Assembly (NCBI RefSeq): GCF_014784055.1
Contig: NZ_CP061813.1
Location: 3,172,001-3,236,000, forward strand
Length of the DNA stretch: 64,000 bases
Direction of reading: 5' to 3'
Source of the DNA: Polaribacter haliotis
GTDB lineage: Bacteria; Bacteroidota; Bacteroidia; Flavobacteriales; Flavobacteriaceae
Shown here: in pieces, positions 18,022 to 31,898 of the stretch
How the letters are laid out: the number at the start of each line of letters is the position of its first letter
Position numbering within the stretch: the stretch's first letter is position 1
Program-made: the position numbers and the translations under genes
Notes under the pieces: generated by a model
Told to the model about the DNA's origin: nothing
Database searches by the model: none
What the model saw: the letters and a program-made list of their open reading frames with translations, nothing else

Positions 18022-18906
18022 CTATTTCTTACCAAAAGGATACAATTCCTGCTGAATAAAACCCTTTGGAAAATCTTCATCACCAGAAAAACCAATTTCG
18101 ATATCTTTTCCAGAATGAGGAATGTAATTCGTTTTAAATATATAATCCCAAATACTTAAAGTTAGTCCGAAATTTACACCATATTTTCTTTCTTCTGGCA
18201 ACTCTTTAGAATGATGCCAAATATGCATTTTGGGGTTGTTCAAAATATATTTTAACCAACCATAATCCCAATTGATATTTGCGTGATTTAGATGCCCAAT
18301 GGTTATATTAAAAAAGTGGACAAAAGCTACATCTTGTGCAGAAAATCCTCCAATAATTGCCAAAGGAATATATCTTAAAGAATTGTAAACTACAGGTTCC
18401 ATCCAATGATAACGCAAATGTGCAGCAAATCCCATTTCTTTTACAGAGTGATGCACTTTGTGGAAATTCCAAAGAAATTCAGATCTGTGTAATAATCTGT
18501 GTGTCCACCATTGTACAAAATCTACCACAATAAAAAAGATAAAAATTCTTGCGAAAAAAGGTAATTTATTAATCTCTAATAATTGAAAATCAGCAATTGA
18601 TAAACCAATAAAACCTAAAACATCATTAAAAAATACAGCTGCAGAATTAGACAAAGCAACCAACACAATTAAGTTCAATAAAAAGAAATTAAAGAACATG
18701 TAAAAAGTGTCTAACCAAAAGTCTTTTCGGAACAAAGATTGGTTTTTACGCCAAGGGAAAATTGCTTCTAAGCCCCAAACAATTAAAGAAATAATTATTA
18801 AACCATAAAAATAATTCTCCCAATTCAATTCCATTAAAACAGAATTTTTAAGATAATTCCAATAATCGGAATAAGAGTTTTTTATGAGATCAATGTATTT
18901 GTTCAT
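18022..18906 (-). CDS. Sterol desaturase / fatty acid hydroxylase family membrane enzyme
   Basis: A 294-residue membrane di-iron oxygenase. Histidine clusters occur in order: WWTHRLLHRS (HxxxH), NFHKVHHS (HxxHH), and HIWHHSKE (HxxHH), with extra His at LRYHWMEP and GHLNHANINW. Four or so hydrophobic segments lie mostly in the first half. The family includes sterol C-4/C-5 oxidases, carotenoid hydroxylases and alkylglycerol monooxygenases. Its start abuts the stop of the purine nucleoside phosphorylase gene (18906/18907), so it is the last gene of the long arsenosugar-type run. A role in modifying a lipid part of an arsenolipid would be attractive but is speculation. Confidence 0.85.
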   Translation of the reverse strand: MNKYIDLIKNSYSDYWNYLKNSVLMELNWENYFYGLIIISLIVWGLEAIFPWRKNQSLFRKDFWLDTFYMFFNFFLLNLIVLVALSNSAAVFFNDVLGFIGLSIADFQLLEINKLPFFARIFIFFIVVDFVQWWTHRLLHRSEFLWNFHKVHHSVKEMGFAAHLRYHWMEPVVYNSLRYIPLAIIGGFSAQDVAFVHFFNITIGHLNHANINWDYGWLKYILNNPKMHIWHHSKELPEERKYGVNFGLTLSIWDYIFKTNYIPHSGKDIEIGFSGDEDFPKGFIQQELYPFGKK

Positions 18907-19722
18907 TTATAAAACCTTAACCACTTCTTTAAAAAGCGTAATCATTTTTGGTTCTGCTTCACCAGCGATTGCAATAATTTCAGCAATATCTACAGGTTGT
19001 AAATTTTTAGGATCACATTCGTCTGTTAAAACTGAAATTGCAGCACAAGGCAAATTTAATTGTTTGGCAACAATAACTTCAGGAACTGTACTCATTCCAA
19101 CAGCATCTGCCTCTAAAATTTGTAGCATTCTGTATTCTGCTCTGGTTTCCAATTGAGGGCCTAAAACACTTGCATAAACACCTTCATGCAATTGAATTTT
19201 TTGTTCTGTAGCAATTAATTTTAATTTTATATTGATTTCTTTAGAATATGGCTCTAGTAGATCTGCGAAAATATTTCCAAAATCGTTGGCGCCTTTAAAG
19301 GCCAAAGGAGAAGTTCCTTGCAAATTAATATGGTCTTCAATGAGCATTAAATCGCCTTTTTTATAATTTAGATTTATTGCACCTGCCGCATTTGAAATTA
19401 AAAGATTTTTAATACCTAAACCATGCATTGTTCTTATTCCATAAGTAACTTCCCAAGCATTATATCCTTCATATAAATGAAAACGACCAGACATTACCAG
19501 TACCTTTTTGCCTGATAATTCTCCATAAATCAACTTTCCAGAATGAAACTCTACTGTAGCTTGTGGAAAATGTGGAATATCTGCATAGGTAATTTCTAAT
19601 TCAATGGAAATTTCATTAACTAATTTACCCAAACCTGTTCCTAAAACAATACCTGTTTCGGGCTTTGTAATTCCGTTTGATTTTAAAAAATCGATTGTTT
19701 CTTGTAGTTGTTGTTTTTTCAT
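18907..19722 (-). CDS. Purine nucleoside phosphorylase (PNP family I)
   Basis: A 271-residue cytoplasmic trimeric-type PNP. It has the phosphate-binding GIVLGTGLGKL near residue 20, SGRFHLYEG around residue 80, LLISNAAGAIN around 113, VGMSTVPEVIVA around 212, and ISVLTDECDP near the base-binding site. The enzyme splits purine nucleosides with phosphate to base and ribose 1-phosphate. In an ArsS locus it could remove adenine from the 5'-deoxyadenosyl-arsenical product, a step known to be needed to reach arsenosugars; that assignment is inference from context. A stem-loop (19723-19757) ends exactly at its start codon. Confidence 0.92.
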   Translation of the reverse strand: MKKQQLQETIDFLKSNGITKPETGIVLGTGLGKLVNEISIELEITYADIPHFPQATVEFHSGKLIYGELSGKKVLVMSGRFHLYEGYNAWEVTYGIRTMHGLGIKNLLISNAAGAINLNYKKGDLMLIEDHINLQGTSPLAFKGANDFGNIFADLLEPYSKEINIKLKLIATEQKIQLHEGVYASVLGPQLETRAEYRMLQILEADAVGMSTVPEVIVAKQLNLPCAAISVLTDECDPKNLQPVDIAEIIAIAGEAEPKMITLFKEVVKVL

Positions 19723-19757
19723 TAATACTGAATTTATGTTATGATAATTCAGTATTA
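19723..19757 (-). promoter_or_regulatory. Stem-loop abutting the PNP start codon
   Basis: An 11-bp perfect stem (19723-19733 TAATACTGAAT paired with 19747-19757) with a 13-nt loop fills most of the 42-bp gap between the DM13-protein stop and the PNP start. No T-run follows on the minus strand, since the ATG comes straight after the stem. It therefore looks more like a translational or mRNA-stability element than a terminator. Confidence 0.5.
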
Positions 19758-19764
19758 AAATGAA

Positions 19765-20466
19765 TTACTGAATCACTAATTTTTGAGTTTTAGATGCATT
19801 TTCAACAGAAATTTTAACCATGTAAACTCCTGGTTGTAAGTAAGAAACATCCAATGCTTTTCCTGTATTTTTTTGCTGATAAAATACTTTTTTCCCTAAA
19901 ACATTAAAAATACGAATTTCTGCAGTATTTGCCTTCATATTTCCAATTCGAATTTCGTTTTTTGCGGGATTTGGATAAACTTTTATTTTCTGAATATCAA
20001 AATTATTTACAGACAAAATACTACAACTTGAAGAAGTAAAATTATTGAATGTTCCTAAATCCCAAAAATGATTGTATTGTAAGCAGTAAAAGAAAATTTT
20101 ATCGAATTTTGTAATGTCTTTTCCATCTGGAATCGCAATAGTATAGGTTTGTGCACCATTTGGTTGTGTTAAGCCAATTTCAAAATGATTCAAATCAGCA
20201 ATTAAGGTTTGTGCCAAAACTGCGTCCGATTTTCCACCAGATTCTACTAAAAAAGCTCGAACATCTGGTCCTGAGGCTGTACTAAAATTACTTGCTAAAT
20301 TTAAAGTAATAGTATTATTTGTGTTTAAAGTTAGCGAAACATCACCAGTAACATTGTAGGAGTTGTCATCAGGGTTGTTACCAAAACCACTAACAATTTC
20401 TGAACATTGCCCATAACTTTGCGAGAAAATAAGTGCAAAAAATAGCGAAAGTAACGTTGTTTTCAT
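19765..20466 (-). CDS. Secreted DM13-domain protein with T9SS type A sorting domain
   Basis: A 233-residue protein with a signal peptide (LLSLFFALIFSQSYG, cut before QCSE). The middle (about 20-145) resembles a DM13 domain: VTGDVSLT, GPDVRAFLVESGG and the conserved YCLQYNHFWDLGTFN near its end; DM13 is a predicted redox or electron-transfer domain with conserved Cys. The tail (about 155-233) is a T9SS type A sorting domain: KVYPNPAKNEIRI, FNVLGKKVF, LQPGVYMVKI. The protein is thus expected outside the outer membrane. It lies 6 bp downstream of the TIGR04282-like transferase gene within the arsenosugar-type run. Its partner is unknown. Confidence 0.82.
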   Translation of the reverse strand: MKTTLLSLFFALIFSQSYGQCSEIVSGFGNNPDDNSYNVTGDVSLTLNTNNTITLNLASNFSTASGPDVRAFLVESGGKSDAVLAQTLIADLNHFEIGLTQPNGAQTYTIAIPDGKDITKFDKIFFYCLQYNHFWDLGTFNNFTSSSCSILSVNNFDIQKIKVYPNPAKNEIRIGNMKANTAEIRIFNVLGKKVFYQQKNTGKALDVSYLQPGVYMVKISVENASKTQKLVIQ

Positions 20467-20472
20467 ATAAAA

Positions 20473-21087
20473 TTATTTAGAGTTGATAAACATATTCATG
20501 ATTTCTGGGATATTTTCAATATCCTCATATACATCTATGTCGTTTTTAAACTCCAATAATTTCACTTTTTTATCAATTAAATCTGTTAAAGTATCTTTTC
20601 TAACAGTTTCTGTTCCCCATTCTTTATTTTTGAAGACATTTTCTTCCAAAGAATTCATCCCTAATAAATAATAACCACCATCTTCAGCAGGACCAATAAC
20701 CACATCATTAGTATCTAATTCATTAAATGCCTTTTCTATGTTTTTTGATGACAAATCATATAAATCACTTCCAATAATTAGCACTTTTTTATAACCTGCA
20801 TCAAATCCGTTTTTGAAAGCATTTTTCATTCGAATGCCTAAATCTTCGCCAAATTGCTGGTGTTTTTGATAAATATCTGGATTCCAAATATCGTTTTCTC
20901 GAATTTTCACGGAATAATAAACAGCTTTATCCGCAGTTTTTACTTCCGAAGAAATATCTCTGGTTCTTTCTAATAAAAATTTATAGATTTCTAGTGCAGT
21001 TTCGTCTCCAACACTTTTTGCTAAACGTGTTTTTGCTTTCCCTAATTCCGGGTTTCTTGTGAAGATTAATAATAGGTTTTTATTCAT
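20473..21087 (-). CDS. TIGR04282-family (DUF2064) arsenosugar-associated glycosyltransferase
   Basis: A 204-residue GT-A-like transferase. It begins LLLIFTRNPELGKAKTRLAK, the signature of 'rSAM/selenodomain-associated transferase 1' (TIGR04282). It continues with GEDLGIRMKNAF, KKVLIIGSDLYDLS at the metal site, and VIGPAEDGGYYLLGM. The family co-occurs with ArsS genes and is thought to transfer a sugar-derived group in arsenosugar assembly. It overlaps the rhodanese gene upstream by 8 bp. A second, more divergent DUF2064 gene lies at 28647-29324. Confidence 0.88.
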   Translation of the reverse strand: MNKNLLLIFTRNPELGKAKTRLAKSVGDETALEIYKFLLERTRDISSEVKTADKAVYYSVKIRENDIWNPDIYQKHQQFGEDLGIRMKNAFKNGFDAGYKKVLIIGSDLYDLSSKNIEKAFNELDTNDVVIGPAEDGGYYLLGMNSLEENVFKNKEWGTETVRKDTLTDLIDKKVKLLEFKNDIDVYEDIENIPEIMNMFINSK

Positions 21088-21574
21088 AAACTTTCTCTCC
21101 TTTTTTTAGCCATTTACTCCAACCCTTACTAAAAGTATGTACTTTTTCAGTTTTGTTTCCTAAAGTGTCCACTACTTGAAAGTCTGCATTTTTCCATTCG
21201 AAAATACCTCCATATAAATTGTAAACATTTGTGTAACCTTCTTCAATTAATTTATGAGCAACAGTTTCCGAGCGAATTCCTAAAGAACAATACACAACTA
21301 TTTTGGCGTTCTTGTCTTCTGGTAATTTTGATAAGGTTTCTTTTAGTTTAAAATGATCATATCCAACACGAATTGCATCTTTTAAGTGACTGACTTTAAA
21401 CTCTTTTTCTTCTCTTGCATCTAACAAAATCGCTTTTGTTTTTGGTAAAGCCAAAGTTTCTACAGACATGTAAGGAACATTTCTTTTGTTCCATTTATTC
21501 AATAATTTATCTAATTTCTTTTGTGCAGAAACAGTTGAGGTAACTACTAATAAAAGGATGAGTATTTTTTTCAT
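21080..21574 (-). CDS. Exported rhodanese-like domain protein
   Basis: A 164-residue protein with a signal peptide (ILILLLVVTSTVSA, cut before QKK) and one rhodanese domain. The domain has LLDAREEKEFKVSHLKDAI, the active-site loop VVYCSLGIRSE with Cys96 and Arg101 (CxxxxR), and NLYGGIFEWKNAD. I placed the start at the ATG at 21574, directly before the signal peptide, instead of an in-frame ATG nine codons upstream. Rhodaneses transfer sulfane sulfur, and some related folds reduce arsenate. Its position in an ArsS locus makes an arsenic- or sulfur-related periplasmic role plausible but unproven. It overlaps the next gene by 8 bp. Confidence 0.87.
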   Translation of the reverse strand: MKKILILLLVVTSTVSAQKKLDKLLNKWNKRNVPYMSVETLALPKTKAILLDAREEKEFKVSHLKDAIRVGYDHFKLKETLSKLPEDKNAKIVVYCSLGIRSETVAHKLIEEGYTNVYNLYGGIFEWKNADFQVVDTLGNKTEKVHTFSKGWSKWLKKGEKVYE

Positions 21575-21584
21575 TTTATCTATA

Positions 21585-22412
21585 TTAAAGTTGAATACCA
21601 AAACCTTGCAAACCAGTTTCTATTGCTGGTAAAATTTCTGTATTATCCCAAATTCCTGTAACAATTGTTCTTGAATATTCTTCAGGAAGCAAACCATTTT
21701 GCATTAGTTTACTGGTTAATTTGTAATTATAATCTAATGTTTTATGTGTAAAGTTAAAACTATTATCGGAATCGTCTAAAATTGCATACCAAACAGTTGG
21801 GTTTCCATCATTTGCTGGCATTCCAATAACTCCAGGATTTAACCAAAGTTTCTTTTTTTCTTGATGATGAAAAGGCAAACCACAATGTCCACCGATAATT
21901 ACATCTGCATTTGTGGCTTTAAAATTCGGTTCTTTTATTGCCCAATCTGTAGATTTAAAAATAAATTCTGATACATTAAAATAAGAACCATGCACAACAG
22001 TTACGTTCTTTTTTGCATATTCAAATGAAATATGATTAGGAATCGTTTTTAAAAATTCTAACGAATTTTCAGACAATTTACTTTGTGCATAAGGATACCA
22101 AAGTTGAGAAAACCCATCACATCTAGAACCTTCTCTAAAATCGCAACCACAATCTTCCGCATTTTCTCCTAATTGAATTTCTACATTTCCAGCAATACTA
22201 TTTACTCCCCATAATTTTAATAATTGGACAGTTTCTTCAGGTTGCGCACAATAACCTACAATATCGCCAGTACAAATACAATTTTCTGGTGGAATATTTT
22301 CTTTTTCAGCAATTTGTTTTAAAGCTTCTAACGCTTGTAAATTGCTGTAAACTCCTCCGAAAACAAGTGTTTTACCAGATATTTTACCTAAATGCTTTAT
22401 TTCTTGATCCAT
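21585..22412 (-). CDS. YfcE/MJ0936-type metallophosphoesterase
   Basis: A 275-residue calcineurin-like phosphoesterase. TLVFGGVYSNLQALEALK has the position of the usual GDxH/SNxxAL block but with GGVYSN in place of GDIHSN, so one metal-binding Asp/His pair is altered. CTGDIVGYCAQP, SIAGNVEIQL (GNxE in place of GNHD), VVHGSYF and IIGGHCGLPFHH follow. The motif changes suggest altered metal binding or substrate. I set the start at the ATG at 22412; an earlier in-frame ATG at 22466 lies far inside the symporter gene. The chosen start overlaps that gene's stop by 16 bp. Its role in the locus is unknown. Confidence 0.8.
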   Translation of the reverse strand: MDQEIKHLGKISGKTLVFGGVYSNLQALEALKQIAEKENIPPENCICTGDIVGYCAQPEETVQLLKLWGVNSIAGNVEIQLGENAEDCGCDFREGSRCDGFSQLWYPYAQSKLSENSLEFLKTIPNHISFEYAKKNVTVVHGSYFNVSEFIFKSTDWAIKEPNFKATNADVIIGGHCGLPFHHQEKKKLWLNPGVIGMPANDGNPTVWYAILDDSDNSFNFTHKTLDYNYKLTSKLMQNGLLPEEYSRTIVTGIWDNTEILPAIETGLQGFGIQL

Positions 22413-23785
22413 TTTGGAATAAAATATAAAATGATACAACTTAAAATTCCCCAAAGATTTATCCAAAGTAAATCTGCATATTTTCCTTCTGTAAAAATAA
22501 GTGATTCAGGGAATAATTTAAACACTAACAATAGTCCAAAAATCAAACCACAAATTACACTCAAATAAAAGCTGATTCTTGGCACTTTTATATTCCAAAA
22601 TATAAAAACGGGAGTTAATCCAATAACCATTGTTCCAGAAATGGTAGTTGCAGATAAAATTTCTGCGCCAAAAAATACGGGTAACGTTCCTAAAACAGCA
22701 ACAATTATCATAGAAATTCTTCCGAAAGAAACTGTTTTACCTAAACCTAAATCCACAGATAATAATTTTGAAAACGAAGAAAAAGTAGAATCTAAAGTAG
22801 ATGCTGCAGAGGTTATCATAATAAAATTAATAACTAATAAAATTACGACACCTAAAGCTTTACCAACTTCTACAGCTGCTTGTCCTTTCATTCCTTGTGA
22901 TTGTGCATACACACCAATTACACTAAATAAAATAATACAAATGGCACCTAAAATACTTGCCCATAAAAAACTTCTACGCGTTACTTTTGGCGAACTTATA
23001 AAACCTCTGTCTGTTAAAACAGGATCGTGAAATGGATAACTAAAAGATTGAATAAGAGCCGCAAAAAAGAGATTTAAACCGAGTTCAAAACTCCATGTTC
23101 CTGAGGTAATTATTTCTTTCGTCGTAAATTCATCCGCAGAAAAAATAGTTGCTAAAATAATAATTAACAAAACAGAAAATAAAACCATTTGAATTACATC
23201 TGTAAAAATAGAACTACTTAAACCACCTTTTAAAGCGTAGCCTAAAGTTAAGATTGTAAACACCAAAATAGACCAATAATAGGAAGCACTATCTTGTTCT
23301 CCAAAATAACTTCCAATAACCATAGTGTTACTCCAAACCTCATTAAAAAGCCTAAAAGCAATCAAAATTGAGAAAACTGCCATCGCTTTTTTTCCAAATC
23401 TGGATGTTAAAAATTGATGAATACTTGTAAAACCACCTTTAACTCTTAATTGATAAATAACAATACCAGCAACCGCAAATGAAAGATAATAACCTGCATA
23501 AGCAACTCCACCAACAATTCCAAAAGACAAACCTAAATTTGCAGCATTTGTAATGCTTTTTGCAAAAATCCAAGAAATGATTAAACTCCCAGTTAACACC
23601 AAAGTATTAGGCGCTTTTTTCTTGTTCACAGCTTTAAAAAACTGATCTGTTGTTTTTGCAAGCGGAGATAAAAAGAACATAGCCAAACTGGATACTATTA
23701 TTAGAGCCCACTGAACCCAAGAAGCCCACCCTAACCCTCCCAAAGGGAGGGAGCTCTCACTCATATAAATAAAGGATGTTAGCAT
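22397..23785 (-). CDS. Sodium:solute symporter (SSS family)
   Basis: A 462-residue membrane transporter with about 13 hydrophobic segments. It carries typical SSS elements such as AGIVIYQLRVKGGFTSIHQF near residue 110, RFGKKAMA, and TSAASTLDSTFSSFSKL near residue 330, part of the sodium-site helix. The substrate cannot be read from sequence. Two starts are possible, the ATG at 23785 or the one at 23764. The first codons (SSLPLGGLGWASW) are encoded by a dispersed palindromic repeat, so the N-terminus appears to have been supplied by a repeat element. It sits between the SusD-like gene and the phosphoesterase gene in the arsenosugar-type run. Confidence 0.85.
   Translation of the reverse strand: MLTSFIYMSESSLPLGGLGWASWVQWALIIVSSLAMFFLSPLAKTTDQFFKAVNKKKAPNTLVLTGSLIISWIFAKSITNAANLGLSFGIVGGVAYAGYYLSFAVAGIVIYQLRVKGGFTSIHQFLTSRFGKKAMAVFSILIAFRLFNEVWSNTMVIGSYFGEQDSASYYWSILVFTILTLGYALKGGLSSSIFTDVIQMVLFSVLLIIILATIFSADEFTTKEIITSGTWSFELGLNLFFAALIQSFSYPFHDPVLTDRGFISSPKVTRRSFLWASILGAICIILFSVIGVYAQSQGMKGQAAVEVGKALGVVILLVINFIMITSAASTLDSTFSSFSKLLSVDLGLGKTVSFGRISMIIVAVLGTLPVFFGAEILSATTISGTMVIGLTPVFIFWNIKVPRISFYLSVICGLIFGLLLVFKLFPESLIFTEGKYADLLWINLWGILSCIILYFIPKWIKK
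23723..23752 (-). repeat. Palindromic dispersed repeat, CCCTCCC type (copy 1, inside the symporter N-terminus)
   Basis: The plus strand reads AGCCCACCCTAACC followed by CCTCCCAAAGGGAGG, a perfect 7-bp stem with an AAA loop. The same unit in the opposite orientation is at 23831-23859. GC content is far above the surroundings. This copy lies in the coding sequence of the symporter, encoding part of SSLPLGGLGW. Confidence 0.75.
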
Positions 23786-23830
23786 GATATTTTTAAATTT
23801 TTATTTCACAACAATTTCCATAACAGTTTT

Positions 23831-23859
23831 TCCCTCCTTTGGAGGGATTAAGGGAGGCT
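23831..23859 (+). repeat. Palindromic dispersed repeat, CCCTCCC type (copy 2, at the susD-like stop)
   Basis: The plus strand reads CCCTCCTTTGGAGGG followed by ATTAAGGGAGGCT. It matches the reverse complement of copy 1 (23723-23752) with a few differences. It overlaps two bases of the TAG stop (23858-23860) of the SusD-like gene. The two copies form an inverted pair around a 78-bp centre. Confidence 0.75.
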
Positions 23860-25297
23860 ATTCGTTCCACCAAACTTTTACGTCCAAACTATTTCCATTT
23901 GTTGCAGCTTCTGCTACTTTATAATTTTCTGCATTTAATGCACCTGCATCTGCAGGATAAGGCATTCTTACAGGAATTAAATTGTTATTTAAACTAGCAG
24001 CAACATTTTTTAAAGCAGGAAATCCTGTTCTTCTAAACTCAATCCAACTTTCGTAACCATTAATTGTATTTGCAATCCATTTTTGCGTAATAATTTGTTC
24101 TAAAGGCGTTTTTCCTGCTGCGTTTAAATTGGCATTTCCAGCCAAATAAGTGGCAGGTAAATTTGTGTTCCAATATTCAAAAGCCAAAGTAACTCCATTG
24201 TTATATAAAGTTTCCATATTTGTGGTAATCAATCCTTTTTGAGCAGCTTCTGCTAATAGAAAACTCGTTTCCCAAGCTGTCATAAAATTAGCATCTAAAG
24301 AAGACGTGTCTTCTCTAAAAATTGTACCAACTAAAGAATAATCATCTGGAGATGGAGTAGTGGTAGAGGCATTAATTCCGTTAATTAAACCATTAAATTC
24401 ATTTGAAGTTGAATTTGCAAATGGCTGATAAAAATTACCAACTCTATTATCATTTAAATCAGCAAAAATCTCTTCAGCAGTTTCCGACATTATAAAGTTT
24501 GTAAAATCTCCATTTCTTAATTGTGCAAATCTAAAACTATTTGGAGCCGTATTTGTAAAATCGAAAGTGGCGTTTTCGCTATTATTTTTGATGTAATTTC
24601 CACTCGTAAAAATAGTTTGTAATTGATTCGAAACATCAACTTTATTGGAAATACGAACTAAATATTTAATTTTTAAAGAATTTGCAAAACGTACCCAAGC
24701 ATCTAAATCTCCGTTAAATAAAATATCTCCTTCCAGAGAAATTGCTGCGGAATAAGCATTTATAGCAGCGATTCCTTTGTCTAAATTATCTAAAATTCCT
24801 TTTTCATTTTGATAAATGTCTTCTTGTAAATCGTATTTCGGAGTTACAGTTCCATCCACACCATTAAAAGCTTCAAAATAAGGGACATCACCAAAAATAT
24901 CTGTCAATGCTGCAGCCATATATGCTTTTAAAATTAATGCAGGCCCTTCATAAACAGCGAAAGATGGCGTTTCACGAGATTGTTTTAGCAGAATTTCATT
25001 ATCACGTAAATTCGTAAAAAATATCGGCCAAGGATTTCCACCCAATTGCGGACTTTTTAAATCGTGTCTGTCAAATAAATTGAAATCTAAAAGCGCATAA
25101 TGCTGTGATAATAAATTTCCCGCAGCAAAACCCTCATAACTCATTTGTTCCCCATAATCGTAAATAACTTGTCTTAAAAGAAGACTTGGTTGTACAGAAA
25201 CTGGTGAATTTTGGTTTGTATTAATTTCTTCAAAATCTTTGGTGCAACTTGCAAATGTAATTGCAAAAATTGCGATGGTATATATAATTTTTTTCAT
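23858..25297 (-). CDS. SusD/RagB-family outer-membrane lipoprotein
   Basis: A 479-residue lipoprotein. ITFASC gives the lipidated Cys at residue 18, followed by TKDFEEINTNQNSP, the usual SusD N-terminus. Further typical parts are LKAYMAAALTDIFGDVPYFEAF (TPR-like helices), NSLKIKYLVRIS, TAWETSFLLAEAA and IITQKWIANTINGYESWIEFRRTGFPAL. Such proteins sit as a lid over a SusC transporter and bind the ligand at the cell surface. The closest family feel is the SusD-like type found with peptide- or small-ligand systems (PF12771). It lies 89 bp downstream of the SusC gene. The ligand is unknown; no polysaccharide-degrading enzyme lies next to it. Confidence 0.92.
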   Translation of the reverse strand: MKKIIYTIAIFAITFASCTKDFEEINTNQNSPVSVQPSLLLRQVIYDYGEQMSYEGFAAGNLLSQHYALLDFNLFDRHDLKSPQLGGNPWPIFFTNLRDNEILLKQSRETPSFAVYEGPALILKAYMAAALTDIFGDVPYFEAFNGVDGTVTPKYDLQEDIYQNEKGILDNLDKGIAAINAYSAAISLEGDILFNGDLDAWVRFANSLKIKYLVRISNKVDVSNQLQTIFTSGNYIKNNSENATFDFTNTAPNSFRFAQLRNGDFTNFIMSETAEEIFADLNDNRVGNFYQPFANSTSNEFNGLINGINASTTTPSPDDYSLVGTIFREDTSSLDANFMTAWETSFLLAEAAQKGLITTNMETLYNNGVTLAFEYWNTNLPATYLAGNANLNAAGKTPLEQIITQKWIANTINGYESWIEFRRTGFPALKNVAASLNNNLIPVRMPYPADAGALNAENYKVAEAATNGNSLDVKVWWNE

Positions 25298-25310
25298 TTT
25301 TTATGTTTTC

Positions 25311-25373
25311 TGTCATTTCGACTTTATGGAGAAATCTAATCGTATATAAAAGATTTCTCCATAAAGTCGAAAT
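25311..25373. repeat. Dispersed intergenic inverted repeat, TGTCATTTCGA family (copy 2)
   Basis: A perfect 23-bp inverted repeat (25315-25337 and 25351-25373) with a 13-nt loop sits between the SusC stop and the SusD-like start. The left arm begins ATTTCGACTTTATGGAGAAA, closely matching copy 1 at 17927. As RNA it would form a strong hairpin between the two genes and could lower expression of the downstream gene. Confidence 0.8.
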
Positions 25374-25386
25374 AATAAATTTGTTT

Positions 25387-28300
25387 TTAGAAATTAAACC
25401 CTAATTTAAATCCTAAACTTCTACTGGTAGCGTAACTCATATCTTCTACACCACTTACAAAACCATTTCCTTGAACTGCTAATTGTTCTGGATCGAAATG
25501 AGGATTTTCTGTAATTACAAATAAATTATTTCCTATGAAAGAAAGGTTTAAAGTAGAGGTGTCTTTCAATCCTAAAAAGCCTTCTTTTAAGTCTAATTTA
25601 TAACCTATTGAAAATTGACGTAATTTTAAAAAAGAAGCATCATACACATTGTTTTCTTCGTGATTTCTGTCGTAAAATTGTCTGTAATAACTTTCTGCAC
25701 CAACTGCAACTGTATTTGGTTGGCCAGAATTTACATTTATTCCTTGTGCAACAATTCCTGCATCTGGTCTAAAAGCAGTCTCTGCTAATTGGCCACCAAC
25801 ATTTCCTAAAGCACTTGTTCTTGAAACAATTTCTCCACCTTGTCTCCAGTCAAATAAGAAACTTGCATTCCAATTTTTATAGCTGAAACTATTGTTCCAT
25901 CCTAAAGTAAAATCAGGATTATAATTTCCAATTTTCTTCAATGTATTATCTGCAATATAAGTTCCATCATCATTAATTAAAAATTCTCCATTTTCGTTTT
26001 TTCGATAACCAGTTCCATACATGTCACCAACGCTACCACCTTCTTCTACTTGAAAATATACTGTCTGATTTGCACTGTCGTAAATTCTACTGTAAGCCAA
26101 TGTTAAACGTCCATCTTCTTGTGGTAAATCTTTAATTATAGATTTGTTTGTTGCGAAATTGAAAGTAGTATTCCATCTAAAGTTTTCATTTCTAATTGGA
26201 GTTCCTCCTAAAATAACTTCCACACCTTGCGTATTTACACGACCACCATTTACAACTTGCTGATTATATCCTGATGAAATTGCAATTGGCAAAGAAATAA
26301 TTTGATCTTTTGTTGTTGAATTGTAATACGTGAAATCTACATTCAAACGATCTTTAAAGAAACGTAAATCTGCTCCAAATTCATAAGAAGTGGTTACTTC
26401 TGGTTTTAAATTTGCATTCGGAATAAAATCTTGATTGCTAAAAGTTGGTTGTCCATTAAAGGCAGTTTGTGAAACAAAAGCACCAGAAGTTTGATACGGA
26501 TTTGTATCATTACCAACCTGTGCAATACTTGCTCTTAACTTCGCAAAAGAAATACTTTCAGGCAATTCTGTAGCATTTGACAAAATAAAACTTGTAGAAA
26601 CTGATGGGTAAAAGAAAGAAACACCATCCACAGAAAAAGGAGTTGCCAATGCACTTGACCAATCATTTCTTCCAGTAATATCTACATATAAATAATCTTT
26701 GTAACCAAATTTTGCAATTCCGTATAAAGAGTTAATTCGTTTTTTAGAATTAAATTGAAAAAATTCAACAGGCGAAGCAGCATTATTTAAACTAAAAATT
26801 CCTGGTTGCGCTAAATTAGTTGTTTGTGCTTGTTTTGTAGATGAAGTTTGGTCTAATCTATTTCCTCCAAAAGAAGCATCGAAAGAAAAATCACCAAAAT
26901 TATCTGTATAATTTATTAAGAAATCTGTATTTATTTCTCTGTAAAAAACATCGTGTTCTGCATAGGCTCCATTTGCGAATCGGTTTGAACTAAAATTACG
27001 ATTAAATTGTCTTTTTTCTGAAGAATAATCCATTCCAGATCGAAAAGAAACACTTAATTTATCGGTAAATTTATGATTTATAGCAATGTTTCCAAAAACA
27101 CGATCTCTATTAAAAGAGTTGGTGTTTTCATTTAAAATGAAAAAAGGATTGTCGAAATACCTATAATTAAAATTGTATTGTTGTACGCCTTCCAAACCAG
27201 GTTGCCAATAATCTCTTAAACTATCGATGTTTAAAGATCTTGGTCCCCAAGCCACTAAAGAATAATTTACATTTTCACTTCCATAACCGTTTGAAGGCCT
27301 ATTATCGCTACTTGAATTTACATAATTAATAGTAGAAGTAATTCGTGTTCTTTCTGTAGGATTAAAATTCGTTTTTAAAGCCACAGTTTTACGTTCTAAA
27401 TTTACCCCAGGAATAATAGATTCACTATCTAAATTAGTAAAAGACAATCTGTAAGAACCTCTTTCAAAACTATCATTTATAGAAATATTATTGATGGTTG
27501 TAACTCCAGTTTGATAAAAGTCTTTTAAATTATTTGGGTTCGATTTGAATAATGTTGGTGTAATTGCATTGCCACTATATAAAGAAGTATCTCCACCACG
27601 AACTACAGTTCCATCTGCTAAAGTTACAGGAGAATCGAATTGAGGAATTAAATTTCCAGCATCTAACCTTGGTCCCCAAGAATAAGAAATTACATCATTA
27701 ACTCCACCTCCAAGTCCATTTCCATAAGCAAAGTTACCACCATTTCCTTGACCATATTCATTTTGAAATTCTGGCAAACGAAAAGCACTATCAAAAGTTA
27801 CAGAAGAATTAATGCTAATTCCCAAACCTTTTTTCTTGCTTCCGTCTTTTGTATTAATTACAATAACTCCATTAGAAGCTCTTGTTCCATACAAAGCAGC
27901 AGCACTGGGTCCTTTTAAAACAGTTACAGATTCTATATCATCTGGATTTACTTCCATGGCTCCATTTCCAAAATCAATTTCTTGAAAACCGGTTGCAGAT
28001 TCATCTGTAAAGTTGAAAACTGTATTGTTGTTTATTGGTGTTCCATCTACAATAAAAAGTGGATTGTTATTAGAGAAAGAAGCTTCACCACGAATGGTTA
28101 TTTTTGATGAAGAACCAACACCAGTTGCACCTTGTGAAATTGTTACACCTGCTAATTTTCCTGATAAATTATCTAAAAAATTGGCGGTTTTAACTTCTGT
28201 TAATTCTGCAGATTTTAATTCTTGTACAACATAACCTAATTCTTTGGTTTTTCTATTTAAACCCAAAGCTGTCACTACAATTTCATTCAAACTTGTTTCA

Positions 28301-28581
28301 TCTTCTTCTAAAGAAATGTTGATGTTAATCCGATTGCCAACCGTAATTTTTTGAGTTTTATAACCTAAATAAGAAAAGGTTAAAATATCTGAAGTTGAAG
28401 CTACATTTATAGAATAATTTCCATTTTCATCTGTAGTTGTTCCATTTCCTTGTTCATTGGAAACACTAACGACTGGTAATTTTTCTCCAGAATTTTTATC
28501 GGTAACTGTTCCTGTAATTTTAGTTTGTGCAAAATTTATGCTCACGAATAGCATAAAAATCCACATAAAAATATGTTTCAT
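25387..28581 (-). CDS. SusC/RagA-family TonB-linked outer-membrane transporter
   Basis: A 1064-residue TonB-dependent transporter. It has a signal peptide (MKHIFMWIFMLFVSINFA), then a carboxypeptidase-D-like domain (about 20-95, KITGTVTDKNSGEKLPVVSV) and a TonB-box region (DETSLNEIVVTALG). The plug (about 115-240) has SGKLAGVTISQGATG, PLFIVDGTPI and LKGPSAAALYGTRASNGVIVI, and a 22-strand barrel ends in LGFKLGFNF. It imports a bulky ligand across the outer membrane with its SusD-like partner. It is placed in the middle of the arsenosugar-type run. A 7-2-7 palindrome lies 35 bp upstream (28616-28631). Confidence 0.95.
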   Translation of the reverse strand: MKHIFMWIFMLFVSINFAQTKITGTVTDKNSGEKLPVVSVSNEQGNGTTTDENGNYSINVASTSDILTFSYLGYKTQKITVGNRININISLEEDETSLNEIVVTALGLNRKTKELGYVVQELKSAELTEVKTANFLDNLSGKLAGVTISQGATGVGSSSKITIRGEASFSNNNPLFIVDGTPINNNTVFNFTDESATGFQEIDFGNGAMEVNPDDIESVTVLKGPSAAALYGTRASNGVIVINTKDGSKKKGLGISINSSVTFDSAFRLPEFQNEYGQGNGGNFAYGNGLGGGVNDVISYSWGPRLDAGNLIPQFDSPVTLADGTVVRGGDTSLYSGNAITPTLFKSNPNNLKDFYQTGVTTINNISINDSFERGSYRLSFTNLDSESIIPGVNLERKTVALKTNFNPTERTRITSTINYVNSSSDNRPSNGYGSENVNYSLVAWGPRSLNIDSLRDYWQPGLEGVQQYNFNYRYFDNPFFILNENTNSFNRDRVFGNIAINHKFTDKLSVSFRSGMDYSSEKRQFNRNFSSNRFANGAYAEHDVFYREINTDFLINYTDNFGDFSFDASFGGNRLDQTSSTKQAQTTNLAQPGIFSLNNAASPVEFFQFNSKKRINSLYGIAKFGYKDYLYVDITGRNDWSSALATPFSVDGVSFFYPSVSTSFILSNATELPESISFAKLRASIAQVGNDTNPYQTSGAFVSQTAFNGQPTFSNQDFIPNANLKPEVTTSYEFGADLRFFKDRLNVDFTYYNSTTKDQIISLPIAISSGYNQQVVNGGRVNTQGVEVILGGTPIRNENFRWNTTFNFATNKSIIKDLPQEDGRLTLAYSRIYDSANQTVYFQVEEGGSVGDMYGTGYRKNENGEFLINDDGTYIADNTLKKIGNYNPDFTLGWNNSFSYKNWNASFLFDWRQGGEIVSRTSALGNVGGQLAETAFRPDAGIVAQGINVNSGQPNTVAVGAESYYRQFYDRNHEENNVYDASFLKLRQFSIGYKLDLKEGFLGLKDTSTLNLSFIGNNLFVITENPHFDPEQLAVQGNGFVSGVEDMSYATSRSLGFKLGFNF

Positions 28582-28615
28582 TTAGTAATTTTTGTGTAAA
28601 ATAATTTGTTGATTT

Positions 28616-28631
28616 TTAGTATTGATACTAA
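28616..28631. promoter_or_regulatory. Palindrome upstream of susC (candidate operator)
   Basis: TTAGTATTGATACTAA has perfect 7-bp arms around a TG centre. It lies in the 65-bp gap between the DUF2064 gene and the SusC gene, about 35 bp before the SusC start. It could be a regulator binding site or part of a short terminator; no regulator gene lies next to it. Confidence 0.4.
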
Positions 28632-28646
28632 CAATACAATAGATAA

Positions 28647-29324
28647 TTACGCAAAAATAATAGGTGAACCTTTATTGAAGTTTGGAGAATAAAATACTTT
28701 TTTTATGTTGAAAAAAGTAGAAAAAACAAACGTCTTTTTAGAGATGATATATCTTTTTAAAAGATTTAAAATTGACGTTGAAATCCTTTTAAAACTATCA
28801 AGTATAAACTGAATATCTTCTAATTTATCAATATCATTTAAGATTTCTAAAAAGGAAATTTCTAAATTTTTAGATTTTGAAATTGATGTAATACATTTTT
28901 GTAAACGATTGGTTTGCCAAGGTAATTTTAAGAACGTTTTTTTATTAAAATGTTCTTTTCTAATTCCCATTAAATAAAAACCACCATCTTTAGATGGTCC
29001 TAAAACCAAATCGTTAGAAGATAAATTGGTTTCGGTTTCTAATAAATGACGCACTTTTAAATGTGGTGTATCATTCCCAATAGTAATTACATTGTCGAAA
29101 CCTTTGTTAAAAAGTGTTTCTACTGCATTAGAAAAACGCTCTCCAAAATTGTTTCCAACTTGCTCTTTTTCAGAAAAAAGAAAGTGTTTAATTCCAGATT
29201 TTTCTACCGTTTTTAAAGTTTGATTATTTAATGCAGAAAAAATTTCAGTAGAAAGAAATGATTTTCTTTCCGTTTCTTTTTCAGCAGAATTTGCAAAAAT
29301 TAATATGGCAGTTTTGTTATTCAA
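28647..29324 (-). CDS. Divergent DUF2064 (TIGR04282-like) transferase
   Basis: A 225-residue protein related to the transferase at 20473-21087: AILIFANSAEKETERK at the N-terminus, GNNFGERFSNAVETLF, NVITIGNDTPHLK at the metal-site position, and VLGPSKDGGFYLMGI. The first motif has lost the usual RxPxxGxxKTRL form, so activity may be changed. The last 45 residues (from about 180, rich in Phe, Lys and Ser) extend beyond the domain and are not recognised. It starts 10 bp after the ArsS stop and is thus coupled to arsS. The two paralogues may act in successive transfer steps, or this one may be degenerate. Confidence 0.8.
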   Translation of the reverse strand: MNNKTAILIFANSAEKETERKSFLSTEIFSALNNQTLKTVEKSGIKHFLFSEKEQVGNNFGERFSNAVETLFNKGFDNVITIGNDTPHLKVRHLLETETNLSSNDLVLGPSKDGGFYLMGIRKEHFNKKTFLKLPWQTNRLQKCITSISKSKNLEISFLEILNDIDKLEDIQFILDSFKRISTSILNLLKRYIISKKTFVFSTFFNIKKVFYSPNFNKGSPIIFA

Positions 29325-29334
29325 ATACTTGTTT

Positions 29335-30390
29335 TTATGCTACAACACCTTGACAGCTACTTCCTGCACCAGCAGTACAACCATAACAATGTTGATTGAT
29401 AATAATATTTCTGTCTTGTAATAATTCTTCGTTGTAATCTTTAATGTGTTTTACTTTACTTGCTACTTTTAAATTTAGCATTTGATTAAAATCGCAATCA
29501 AACAACCAACCATCCCAACTTATAGAAAGTGTATTTGTACACATTACGTTTTCCACAGCTGAAGGATTGTATGCGTCTAACAAAGAATGCATATAATCTT
29601 CATAATTATCTGAAGCGATTAAATAATCTAAAAAACGACTAATTGGTAAATTTGTAATTGCAAAAAGACTATGGAAATCGATATCAAAATCTTCTTTCAA
29701 CGCTTTTTTGAAATCATTTTGTAGTGCCATTTGATCTCCAGGTAAAAATGCTCCTGAAGGGTTATACACCAAATCTAATTTTAAATCAGATCCAGGCATT
29801 CCATAACCCACTGCATTTAATTCTTGCAATGCTTTTATAGATAAATCGAAAACGCCTTCTCCACGCTGTTTGTCTGTTTTTCCACGAGTCCAATGTGGCA
29901 TTGACGAAACTACGTGTACATTATGTTTTTTGAAGAATTCTGGTAAGTCGTAATATTTTTTATTTGCTCTAATAATTGTTAAGTTAGAACGTACAATAAA
30001 ATCTTTAATTCCTGCTTTTGATGCTTCTTCTACAAACCATCTAAAATTAGGATTCATTTCTGGAGCTCCACCAGTTAAATCTAACGTGTGTGCTTCCGTT
30101 TTTTGAATGACTTCTAAACACTGTTTCATCGTGTCTACAGTCATAATTTCTTTTCTATCTGGACCAGCATCTACATGACAATGTTCACAAACCTGGTTAC
30201 ACATATATCCCAAATTTATTTGTAGAATTTCTAGTTTTTTAGGACGCAAAGGAAAGTGACCAGTTTCTTTAATTTTTGCCGCAAATGTTGGTAATTCTCC
30301 GTTTGCGAAAATTCCGTTTGAAAGAATTTCCATTTGACGTGAGGTATTTGCAATATCGTTATTTCTTGCTTTAAGTGATTTTGTAGCCAT
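29335..30390 (-). CDS. arsS: Arsenosugar biosynthesis radical SAM protein ArsS
   Basis: A 351-residue radical SAM enzyme. GYMCNQVCEHCHVD holds the CxxxCxxC 4Fe-4S cluster ligands Cys64, Cys68 and Cys71; LDLTGGAPEMNP is the SAM-contact GGxPE-like segment. The C-terminal Cys-rich tail reads CYGCTAGAGSSCQG, the hallmark of the TIGR04167 family, in which selenocysteine can occur in other organisms. ArsS transfers a 5'-deoxyadenosyl group to dimethylarsinous acid, the committed step to arsenosugars. Neighbouring genes for the peroxidase-like protein and DUF2064 transferases are the standard companions. No arsenite methyltransferase (arsM) is seen in this window. Confidence 0.95.
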   Translation of the reverse strand: MATKSLKARNNDIANTSRQMEILSNGIFANGELPTFAAKIKETGHFPLRPKKLEILQINLGYMCNQVCEHCHVDAGPDRKEIMTVDTMKQCLEVIQKTEAHTLDLTGGAPEMNPNFRWFVEEASKAGIKDFIVRSNLTIIRANKKYYDLPEFFKKHNVHVVSSMPHWTRGKTDKQRGEGVFDLSIKALQELNAVGYGMPGSDLKLDLVYNPSGAFLPGDQMALQNDFKKALKEDFDIDFHSLFAITNLPISRFLDYLIASDNYEDYMHSLLDAYNPSAVENVMCTNTLSISWDGWLFDCDFNQMLNLKVASKVKHIKDYNEELLQDRNIIINQHCYGCTAGAGSSCQGVVA

Positions 30391-30492
30391 ATATGCTGAA
30401 CTTGTTTCAGTATCTTTTTAAAGATGGTTTATAGTATTTACGAAGAAAATTGTGTTTTGGTTTTTAGTAGGAATGAATATAGTTGGCTTTAG

Positions 30493-30560
30493 ATTTCTGC
30501 CTGCGCAGAAATAAGCGACCTCTAAAATTTTTGCGAAGAGCAAAAATTAGAGTCTGCTTA
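30493..30560 (-). repeat. Double hairpin between the peroxidase-like gene and arsS
   Basis: Two adjacent inverted repeats fill most of the space downstream of the peroxidase-like gene: a perfect 8-bp stem (ATTTCTGC, 30493-30500, with 30505-30512) and a longer imperfect stem (30512-30534 with 30540-30560, TAAGC...GCTTA ends). The right end carries the TAA stop codon of the gene. It may act as a terminator or attenuator before arsS, or be a dispersed repeat. Confidence 0.6.
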
Positions 30561-30893
30561 CATTTCTAGCTTATTTACTTTATTCATCATTTGAACTCCA
30601 TGCACTAAAGTTGCACCACTTTTAATTGCGGCACCCACATGAATTGCTTCCATCATTTCTTCTTTGGTAACGCCTCTTTGTAAAGTGTCTTTTGTGTACG
30701 CATCTATACAATATGGACATTGTTCTGTGTGTGCAACTGCCAAAGCAATTAAAGATTTTTCACGAGCAGTTAAGGCACCTTCTTCAAAAACTTTTCCATA
30801 ATAATCGAAGAATTTGTTTCCAAGTTCTTCGTTCCATTCTGTAATTTTTCCGAATTTTCTTAAATCTGCGGAATCGTAATATGTTTTAGACAT
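30558..30893 (-). CDS. Arsenosugar biosynthesis-associated peroxidase-like protein (CMD/AhpD family)
   Basis: A 111-residue carboxymuconolactone-decarboxylase/AhpD-fold protein. LTAREKSLIALAVAHTEQC leads into CPYCIDAYT, giving Cys59 and Cys62 (CxxC). The His that normally follows in AhpD (CxxCxxxH) is Tyr66 here, so classical peroxidase chemistry may be altered. The sequence matches the TIGR04169-type companion of ArsS. It lies upstream of arsS on the same strand with 167 bp between, which contain the double hairpin. Its exact role in arsenosugar formation is not established. Confidence 0.92.
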   Translation of the reverse strand: MSKTYYDSADLRKFGKITEWNEELGNKFFDYYGKVFEEGALTAREKSLIALAVAHTEQCPYCIDAYTKDTLQRGVTKEEMMEAIHVGAAIKSGATLVHGVQMMNKVNKLEM

Positions 30894-30932
30894 TTATTTT
30901 TTTTTGAAAATTAAAAAACGAAAGATAATAAT

Positions 30933-31643
30933 TTATTTTCCGTTTAAACTCCAATCGTATTTTAAATAAGATGTTCTTGCGTTATTCTTAATTTCTATAT
31001 TAGAATATTTATTTAAATAATCGATAACAGATCCATTTTTAGTGAAGTCTTCTTTAAACCAATCGAAAATTGAAGAAATTTGAACTTTCTTATTCGATAT
31101 TTTATTTCTTGATGAATCGTTTACAAATTCTTTCATTAATTTTTCTAATGAAGCGTCTACATTTTCTTCTGTAAAAGCCATGTTTAATAATTTAGGACAA
31201 GAACCAGAGGCGCAATTTACACCAACATGAATTCTTGGGTCGAACAAGTTTTTACGTAAAATTTCGTGTTCTATATGGTCTAAAGTATACGTTTTTCCAC
31301 CAACTTTAGCGAAAGGAATTTTCCAAGCGGTTTTTCCTTTTTCTTTGATATCCATAATACTTTTTAATGGATAGTTTTCTAATATTTTTTTGATTGTATA
31401 AGCGTTATAAGCATTAATCCAAAATGCTTTTTGTTTGTTTTCTGACCAAGAATTTTCTGGCGAAGTTTTTTCTAAATAAGAAATGTAAATGTCTAATTTT
31501 GCTTTGTCTTCTTTAAATGATTTGTAATCTACAATTCCGTCTTTGGTAACGTGCTTTTGAAGTAAATCGTTAAAAATAGCTGTTTGAGCATTTGCTTGAC
31601 TAAATGTAAAAAGGGTTATAAGTGCTAAAAGTATTTTTTTCAT
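30933..31643 (-). CDS. DUF547-domain exported protein
   Basis: A 236-residue protein with a signal peptide (LLALITLFTFSQANA, cut before QTA). DUF547 features follow: DGIVDYKSFKEDKAKLDIYI, KQKAFWINAYNAYTIKKIL, YTLDHIEHEILRKN and DPRIHVGVNCASGSCPKL, the last containing conserved Asn and Cys residues reminiscent of a papain-like or thiol site. Family function is unknown; it often occurs near ArsS genes. It appears to be the first gene of the minus-strand run, with a Bacteroidetes-type -7 box (31706-31713) about 60 bp upstream. Confidence 0.88.
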   Translation of the reverse strand: MKKILLALITLFTFSQANAQTAIFNDLLQKHVTKDGIVDYKSFKEDKAKLDIYISYLEKTSPENSWSENKQKAFWINAYNAYTIKKILENYPLKSIMDIKEKGKTAWKIPFAKVGGKTYTLDHIEHEILRKNLFDPRIHVGVNCASGSCPKLLNMAFTEENVDASLEKLMKEFVNDSSRNKISNKKVQISSIFDWFKEDFTKNGSVIDYLNKYSNIEIKNNARTSYLKYDWSLNGK

Positions 31644-31705: not shown

Positions 31706-31713
31706 CAAAGTTA
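31706..31713 (-). promoter_or_regulatory. Candidate -7 promoter box for the DUF547-arsS run
   Basis: The minus strand reads TAACTTTG, an exact match to the Bacteroidetes TAnnTTTG box, 63 bp before the DUF547 start. No convincing -33 TTG lies at the usual distance. It is the only such box I saw upstream of the run. Confidence 0.5.
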
Positions 31714-31860: not shown

Positions 31861-31868
31861 TATTTTTG
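31861..31868 (+). promoter_or_regulatory. fabD -7 promoter box
   Basis: TATTTTTG matches TAnnTTTG and lies 31 bp before the fabD ATG at 31899, giving a predicted leader of about 20-25 nt. A TTG start codon at 31866 overlaps this box, which argues against that longer reading. Confidence 0.6.
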
Positions 31869-31898
31869 CCGACAACTAAACGAATAAAAATAGTAAAA

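What the first reader, a model, noticed from the sequence alone, without database searches (positions are those of the whole stretch)
18022..31643. Thirteen-gene extended arsenosugar-type locus on one strand
ArsS, the peroxidase-like partner and two DUF2064 transferases are established companions. Here they are tied by short gaps or overlaps to a SusC/SusD pair, a sodium symporter, an exported rhodanese, an altered phosphoesterase, a T9SS-secreted DM13 protein, a purine nucleoside phosphorylase and a sterol-desaturase-like hydroxylase. A PNP could remove adenine from the 5'-deoxyadenosyl-arsenical made by ArsS, the hydroxylase could act on a lipid part, and the SusCD/symporter genes could import or recover an arsenical. 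This would be a full uptake-to-arsenolipid module; the joint function is inference.
Basis: partly seen in the sequence, partly recalled or inferred. Interest (0 to 1): 0.75.

Follow-up and report, generated by a model that had tools for sequence, protein, structure and literature searches.

The report
Arsenosugar locus with an import cassette
A marine-type bacterium carries genes of the arsenic-sugar pathway joined to a set of uptake genes, and relatives that have this uptake set have often lost the enzyme that methylates arsenic, as if they import ready-methylated arsenic instead of making it.

Summary
In detail: 13 genes on the minus strand at 18022-31643, gaps -16 to 167 bp. Comparison splits the locus into three layers. 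(1) ArsS and its AhpD-like partner: the arsenosugar core. (2) Rhodanese-TIGR04282-PNP: often beside ArsS (PNP in 73 of 100 loci) but also found without it, so not arsenic-specific. (3) A cassette: DUF2064-SusC-SusD-symporter-altered phosphoesterase. The phosphoesterase is in 33 of 249 family genomes, all with ArsS, and in 0 of 65 without; ArsS lies in the same ~20 kb in 32 of 33; in five it is fused to the AhpD partner. It lost three metal ligands and gained invariant cysteines. Within the genus ArsM is missing in 17 of 27 cassette genomes versus 4 of 77 other ArsS genomes (p = 2e-9; provisional tree-based p = 7e-4). Best reading: the cassette imports a ready-methylated arsenical and delivers it to ArsS, making ArsM dispensable. 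Direction, substrate and chemistry are inferred. The proposed PNP and lipid-hydroxylase roles remain unproven.

The parts
31706..31713 (-). TAACTTTG, matches the Bacteroidetes -7 promoter element TAnnTTTG (consensus recalled), 62 bases upstream of the first gene; no clear -33 element
   Evidence: Sequence and pattern match; weak evidence
30933..31643 (-). DUF547 protein with signal-peptide-like start
   Evidence: PF04784 98 bits; same-strand DUF547 in 67 of 100 ArsS loci
30558..30893 (-). AhpD-like protein, CxxC at residue 59
   Evidence: TIGR04169 194.2 bits, cut-off 120; in 94 of 100 ArsS loci; CPYC
29335..30390 (-). ArsS, radical SAM enzyme, CxxxCxxC at residue 64
   Evidence: TIGR04167 433.5 bits, cut-off 300; CNQVCEHC
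28647..29324 (-). DUF2064 protein of the cassette (TTG start)
   Evidence: PF09837 75.2 bits; TIGR04282 only 106.3 bits, below cut-off 134
25387..28581 (-). SusC-like TonB-dependent transporter
   Evidence: Pfam TonB receptor barrel, plug and CarbopepD_reg_2
23858..25297 (-). SusD-like outer-membrane lipoprotein
   Evidence: PF12771 282.9 bits
22397..23785 (-). Divergent sodium:solute symporter
   Evidence: PF00474 26.1 bits, cut-off 22.8; nearest solved sequence SLC5A7 at E 2.5e-5
21585..22412 (-). Altered metallophosphoesterase, cysteine-rich; overlaps the symporter gene by 16 bases
   Evidence: PF12850 44.5 bits; residues; fold; AhpD fusions
21080..21574 (-). Rhodanese with signal-peptide-like start and active-site loop CSLGIR
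   Evidence: NF045521 209.4 bits, cut-off 145
20473..21087 (-). TIGR04282 DUF2064 glycosyltransferase-like protein
   Evidence: 209.3 bits, cut-off 134; in 73 of 100 ArsS loci
19765..20466 (-). DM13 protein with type IX sorting tail
   Evidence: PF10517 38.7 and PF18962 62.6 bits; on the ArsS strand in 8 of 100 ArsS loci
18907..19722 (-). Purine nucleoside phosphorylase, the genome's only match to NF006054
   Evidence: 324.8 bits, cut-off 218
18022..18906 (-). Fatty-acid-hydroxylase/sterol-desaturase family protein with three histidine boxes
   Evidence: PF04116 100.4 bits; HRLLH 136, HKVHH 149, HIWHH 228

Best explanation
The locus is an arsenosugar-type ArsS operon with a built-in uptake cassette (DUF2064-SusC-SusD-symporter-altered phosphoesterase). 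SusC/SusD take an organoarsenical across the outer membrane and the symporter takes it across the inner one. The cysteine-rich altered phosphoesterase, working with the AhpD-like thiol protein to which it is sometimes fused, holds or reduces the arsenical and hands a dimethylated trivalent arsenical to ArsS, which adds the 5'-deoxyadenosyl group. Because the arsenical arrives already methylated, ArsM becomes dispensable; this genome lacks it. Shown by comparison: the gene set, the ArsS dependence of the phosphoesterase in the sample, the fusions, the changed residues, the absence of a detectable ArsM here, and the association of that absence with the cassette. Inferred: one transcript, import as the direction, the substrate, and the chemistry of the phosphoesterase.
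For: Phosphoesterase in 33 of 249 family genomes (E <= 5.5e-107; next best 5.5e-25), all 33 with ArsS, 0 of 65 without. ArsS in the same fetched stretch in 32 of 33; symporter beside it in 33 of 33; SusD 30 of 33. Fused to AhpD in 5 genomes. 80 named loci keep the set. Lost D/H/H ligands and gained Cys, on an intact phosphoesterase fold. No ArsM found in the closed genome. ArsM missing in 17 of 27 versus 4 of 77 ArsS genomes of the genus, and 16 of 33 versus 22 of 151 of the family; 16 of 25 versus 1 of 51 in high-quality genus genomes; likelihood test p = 7e-4 and 2e-4. ArsM and ArsS act together in Synechocystis (PMC8552651, passage).
Against: 17 of 33 family and 10 of 27 genus cassette genomes keep ArsM, and 22 family ArsS genomes lack both. 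Independent-pairs tests had 3-4 supported pairs and cannot reach significance. The trees are built from locus proteins, not core genes. ArsM absence rests on one query at 1e-40 outside the own genome, so unrelated methyltransferases could be missed. In G087 the cassette is apart from ArsS, and in three genus genomes a 60-63% relative lies by ArsM instead. Dimethylarsinate is small and would hardly need SusC/SusD. No substrate evidence exists.
Confidence: 0.45

Rival explanations
1. The cassette imports a co-substrate rather than arsenic: a sugar, nucleoside or glycan piece that the DUF2064 proteins join to the deoxyadenosyl-arsenical. ArsM loss would be incidental.
For: SusC/SusD and sodium symporters commonly move sugars (general knowledge). 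A DUF2064 gene travels with the cassette even where it stands apart from ArsS (L175).
Against: Does not predict that ArsM absence goes with the cassette or the AhpD fusion.
Confidence: 0.2
2. The locus works in the breakdown direction: algal arsenosugars are imported and taken apart for carbon, phosphate or detoxification, with ArsS re-adenosylating released dimethylarsenite for disposal.
For: Seaweeds contain large amounts of arsenosugars (PMC6656958, abstract). PNP, rhodanese and a phosphoesterase fold fit salvage chemistry.
Against: ArsS builds rather than breaks a C-As bond (PMC12159101, passage). The phosphoesterase has lost three metal ligands. No glycoside hydrolase is among the 13 genes.
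Confidence: 0.15
3. The 13 genes are not one functional unit: housekeeping genes (PNP, rhodanese, TIGR04282, DUF547, hydroxylase) merely lie beside an arsenic locus.
For: Rhodanese and TIGR04282 stand by PNP in 8 of 15 PNP loci of ArsS-less genomes; TIGR04282 relatives in 16 of 65; hydroxylase relatives in 16 of 65.
Against: May hold for that group, but not for the cassette phosphoesterase: 33 of 33 with ArsS, 0 of 65 without.
Confidence: 0.15

Closest known systems
ArsM/ArsS arsenosugar pathway (Synechocystis sp. PCC 6803; Xue 2019 as cited in PMC8552651; ArsS adenosylation, Cheng 2021 as cited in PMC12159101; passages seen only)
   Same: ArsS of family TIGR04167 over the cut-off, with the AhpD-like TIGR04169 and a TIGR04282 protein that NCBI names as arsenosugar companions.
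   Different: No ArsM found; adds SusC, SusD, symporter and altered phosphoesterase.
Common flavobacterial ArsS locus (AhpD-ArsS-rhodanese-TIGR04282-PNP-ArsM-hydroxylase-DUF547-TIGR04283)
   Same: Shares AhpD, ArsS, rhodanese, TIGR04282, PNP, hydroxylase and DUF547.
   Different: Lacks ArsM (present in 65 of 100 loci) and shows no TIGR04283 gene; has the cassette between ArsS and rhodanese.
Metallophosphoesterases 3rqz and Ap4A hydrolase SapH (3qfm)
   Same: Predicted fold, Foldseek E 1.6e-16 and 4.9e-15.
   Different: Three ligands of one metal site replaced by Gly, Tyr, Gly in 33 of 33, and new invariant cysteines.
SusC/SusD polysaccharide utilization loci
   Same: Adjacent SusC-SusD pair.
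   Different: No carbohydrate-active enzyme among the 13 genes; bound to ArsS instead.

Membership tests
Arsenosugar biosynthesis locus (ArsM/ArsS type) | ArsS over the TIGR04167 cut-off | tested here: met
   433.5 bits, cut-off 300
Arsenosugar biosynthesis locus (ArsM/ArsS type) | ArsM to supply the dimethylated arsenical | tested here: not met
   NF008823 none over cut-off; NF038099-type query no hit at 1e-40; weak hits are other methyltransferases
Arsenosugar biosynthesis locus (ArsM/ArsS type) | Arsenosugar made by the cell | not testable with these tools
   needs HPLC-ICP-MS
TIGR04282 | Score over the family cut-off of 134 bits | tested here: inconclusive
   20473-21087 met (209.3); 28647-29324 not met (106.3)
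Active two-metal metallophosphoesterase | Full set of metal ligands | tested here: not met
   D, H, H replaced by G20, Y22, G178 in 33 of 33; D50, N76, H141, H176 kept; 11 of 11 ordinary relatives keep D, H, H
Polysaccharide utilization locus | SusC/SusD with carbohydrate-active enzymes | tested here: not met
   SusC/SusD present; no such enzyme family among the 13 genes by Pfam; SusC and SusD were not run on NCBIfam
Ornithine-lipid hydroxylase OlsE | NF052566 cut-off of 475 bits | tested here: not met
   103.6 bits
Fatty-acid-hydroxylase/sterol-desaturase superfamily | PF04116 domain and histidine boxes | tested here: met
   100.4 bits, cut-off 31; three boxes
Trimeric purine nucleoside phosphorylase | NF006054 cut-off of 218 bits | tested here: met
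   324.8 bits; 267.8 on TIGR01700, below that family's 293.35

The most novel reading that the evidence does not exclude
Flavobacteriaceae have evolved an organoarsenic salvage system: outer- and inner-membrane importers plus a cysteine-rich pseudo-phosphoesterase that carries the arsenical and partners with (or is fused to) an AhpD-like thiol protein to feed ArsS. Having it makes ArsM redundant, so ArsM has been lost repeatedly. It would be a dedicated importer of a methylated arsenical or arsenosugar, and would mean that some bacterial arsenosugar is rebuilt from other organisms' methylated arsenic rather than made from arsenite.
Probability: 0.35. Interest if true: 0.85.

Novelty: new variant of a known kind. 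Interest (0 to 1): 0.62.

Why it matters
Why marine organisms make arsenosugars and how methylated arsenic moves between them are long-open questions (general knowledge). A cassette found only with ArsS that goes with absence of ArsM makes this directly testable: related genomes of one genus differ in these two traits, on neighbouring branches of a locus-protein tree (for example G270 and G317, support 89; G300 and G254, support 100). It also gives a candidate organoarsenic importer and a candidate arsenical-handling protein on a phosphoesterase fold.

Tried and rejected
PNP specificity: the Thr-Asp pair at the base site looked like a 6-aminopurine signature (comparison with human PNP and MTAP recalled), but 13 of 13 PNPs from ArsS-less genomes have it too, as do 84 of 84 from ArsS loci (2 of 15 ArsS-less PNP loci were not extracted by my filter). 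Rejected as evidence.

TIGR04282, rhodanese and PNP as strict arsenic companions: rejected.

Hydroxylase as arsenic-specific: in the four ArsS control genomes the relative is 71-75% identical; in ArsS-less genomes the best is 58%, but 49-58% relatives are in 16 of 65 of them, and the same-genus genome G131 has one at 54% far from its ArsS locus. Left open.

A FabD-based species tree: full-length FabD lay in only 12 of the 62 stretches, so its columns were dropped and the genus tree rests on ArsS, DUF547 and AhpD. Independent-pairs tests were under-powered. The likelihood test is my own script on one tree each, with several rates at their bounds; its p-values are approximate.

Promoter-like sites were no more frequent than in shuffles (62 versus 66.1), terminator-like sites slightly more (9 versus 5.9); nothing decisive about co-transcription.

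Substrate from sequence: the symporter's nearest solved relatives are a choline transporter (E 2.5e-5) and SGLT1, SusD's nearest are SusD/RagB homologues of several glycan systems; too weak to name a substrate.

Literature: ten searches of the open-licence library. I saw no listed title or abstract that ties SusC/SusD or a symporter to ArsS; several lists were capped and most subscription journals are not held, so this is not proof of absence. Papers were seen as listings, passages (PMC8552651, PMC12159101) or abstract (PMC6656958) only. Xue 2019 itself was not held.
Full report
WHAT IS THERE. Thirteen genes run on the minus strand from 31643 down to 18022 with gaps of -16 to 167 bp: DUF547, AhpD-like TIGR04169, ArsS TIGR04167, a DUF2064 protein, SusC, SusD, a divergent sodium symporter, an altered metallophosphoesterase, a rhodanese, a TIGR04282 protein, a DM13/type IX protein, a purine nucleoside phosphorylase and a fatty-acid-hydroxylase family protein. 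The genes next to both ends are on the plus strand (17162-17887 and 31866-32786). The genome is one 3.80 Mb contig, 100% complete. The nearest named relatives of its phosphoesterase (up to 93% identity) are Polaribacter, so it is probably a Polaribacter (inference).

CONSERVATION. ArsS over the cut-off is in 184 of 249 genomes sampled from the family. One ArsS neighbourhood from each of 100 of these 184 genomes, all taken from the listed best-scoring matches with short contigs skipped, was fetched and searched with the window's proteins. On the ArsS strand: AhpD 94, PNP 73, TIGR04282 73, DUF547 67, rhodanese 62, hydroxylase 36, cassette-type DUF2064 25, symporter 17, phosphoesterase 17, SusD 14, SusC 11, DM13 8 of 100. 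An ArsM gene, which our locus lacks, is in 65 of 100; a member of it is NCBIfam's 'arsenosugar biosynthesis arsenite methyltransferase' NF038099 (580.8 bits, cut-off 400).

THREE LAYERS. (1) ArsS-AhpD is the core. (2) Rhodanese-TIGR04282-PNP is common beside ArsS but not bound to it: of 18 ArsS-less genomes searched, 15 have a PNP; 8 of those 15 PNP loci also hold rhodanese and TIGR04282, and 5 hold DUF547. A TIGR04282 relative is in 16 of 65 ArsS-less genomes, so the label 'arsenosugar glycosyltransferase' proves little by itself. (3) The cassette. The phosphoesterase is found at E <= 5.5e-107 in 33 of 249 genomes, with a clean gap to the next best at 5.5e-25. All 33 have ArsS; none of the 65 ArsS-less genomes has it (Fisher p = 2.7e-5). 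ArsS lies in the same fetched stretch in 32 of 33; in G087 the cassette stands apart and ArsS is elsewhere. The symporter is beside it in 33 of 33. SusD was found in 30 of 33, absent from L083, L116 and L122; SusC in 26 of 33, with the same three absences and four cut off by the edge of the fetched stretch. In five genomes phosphoesterase and AhpD partner are one protein of 409-419 residues. A scan of the genome-contig collection gave 230 stretches that encode a relative; in the best 80 kept, all from Flavobacteriaceae-type names in the titles, the same-strand set is symporter 80, TIGR04282 80, PNP 78, ArsS 77, AhpD 77, SusD 74, SusC 73, rhodanese 72, cassette DUF2064 68, DUF547 67, hydroxylase 53, ArsM 37, DM13 18.

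THE ALTERED PHOSPHOESTERASE. In 33 sequences three ligands of one metal site are replaced in all (G20, Y22, G178), while D50, N76, H141 and H176 stay in all. Cys45, 55, 88, 90 and 98 are invariant, Cys177 is in 31 of 33 and Cys47 in 29 of 33. In 11 ordinary relatives at 26-33% identity the three ligands are D, H and H in 11 of 11; positions 45, 55 and 177 are never Cys, position 98 is not Cys in the 10 rows shown, but 88 and 90 are Cys in 5 of 11 and 47 in 9 of 11, so not every cysteine is new. Assignment of residues to metal sites 1 and 2 is recalled from the family. AlphaFold2 on 29 sequences gave pLDDT 90.7; Foldseek places the model with metallophosphoesterases, nearest 3rqz and the Ap4A hydrolase SapH. 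A one-site, cysteine-rich protein fused to a CxxC protein looks more like a binder or redox partner for a thiol-seeking ligand such as a trivalent arsenical than like an ordinary phosphodiesterase; that step is inference.

ARSM IS MISSING. In the own genome NF008823 has no match over its cut-off and the flavobacterial ArsM has none at 1e-40; its weak hits lie in a UbiE-like (recognised by eye) and another generic methyltransferase. All 146 family genomes with ArsM also have ArsS. Among ArsS genomes of the family ArsM is missing in 16 of 33 with the phosphoesterase and 22 of 151 without (p = 5.9e-5). In the genus (116 genomes: ArsS 104, ArsM 84, phosphoesterase 27; one ArsM genome, G307, 70% complete, has no ArsS) it is missing in 17 of 27 and 4 of 77 (p = 2.3e-9); three of those 4 are 57-81% complete. 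In genomes at least 90% complete and at most 5% contaminated the figures, derived from the tallies, are 16 of 25 and 1 of 51 (p = 2.8e-9). In 23 of the 27 the phosphoesterase lies within 10 kb of ArsS; in three (60-63% identity) it lies within about 3 kb of ArsM instead; in one the two are on different contigs.

RELATEDNESS. These counts are not independent. On a 62-row tree of locus proteins (26 of the 27 cassette genomes and 36 others) the cassette needs at least 8 changes and ArsM absence 10; among 4 independent pairs on supported branches ArsM absence goes the same way in 2.7 on average and the other way in 0.0, which cannot reach significance. The 115-row family tree gave 4 pairs, 2.0 the same way and 0.1 the other. 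A dependent-versus-independent evolution model, my own script, gave p = 7e-4 (genus) and 2e-4 (family), with several rates at their bounds. The association is strong; its phylogenetic test is provisional.

HOW IT MOST LIKELY WORKS. ArsS works with ArsM in the first steps of arsenosugar synthesis in Synechocystis (PMC8552651, passage) and adenosylates arsenic (PMC12159101, passage); that ArsS takes the dimethylated trivalent arsenical is recalled. Many cassette genomes do without a detectable ArsM; the cassette holds outer- and inner-membrane importers and a cysteine-rich protein tied to the AhpD partner. The simplest reading is import of ready-methylated arsenic. An arsenosugar or larger arsenical suits SusC/SusD better than dimethylarsinate; seaweeds contain large amounts (PMC6656958, abstract). 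Cassette genomes that keep ArsM (17 of 33, 10 of 27) would use both routes; ArsS genomes with neither (22 of 184 in the family) are unexplained.

PNP: the genome's only match to its family, without a distinctive base-site residue; it may serve purine salvage and the arsenical alike. Hydroxylase: intact histidine boxes, not OlsE by its cut-off, with 49-58% relatives in 16 of 65 ArsS-less genomes. A lipid end product is not supported by anything found here.

VERDICT. A real, conserved, extended ArsS locus. The core is known; the new part is an ArsS-dependent uptake cassette that appears to stand in for ArsM.

Noticed in passing
L106, L110, L119, L126, L177: The altered phosphoesterase and the AhpD-like TIGR04169 protein are one fused protein of 409-419 residues.
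   Followed up: partly
L188, L189, L191, L193, L194, L195, L197, L198: Rhodanese-TIGR04282-PNP cluster in genomes without ArsS; TIGR04282 may have an arsenic-independent role.
   Followed up: partly
genomes G250, G291, G356: A 60-63% relative of the phosphoesterase lies within about 3 kb of ArsM while ArsS is elsewhere.
   Followed up: no
L175 (genome G087): The DUF2064-SusC-SusD-symporter-phosphoesterase cassette stands apart from ArsS, showing that these five genes move as a unit.
   Followed up: partly
22 family genomes listed: ArsS genomes with neither a detectable ArsM nor the cassette; another methyltransferase or another source of methylated arsenic may exist there.
   Followed up: no
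L034, L044, L054, L092: Downstream of the ArsS locus in many relatives lie an NAD(P)H-type oxidoreductase (43 of 100 loci), a NapH-like iron-sulphur membrane protein (37 of 100) and a TIGR04283 glycosyltransferase, not seen in the window's locus.
   Followed up: no
L055, L059, L065, L067, L072, L086: A second architecture, DUF2064-AhpD-ArsS alone, in loci that in about a quarter of cases (24 of 100) also hold a TetR-like regulator (recognised by eye) just after ArsS.
   Followed up: no
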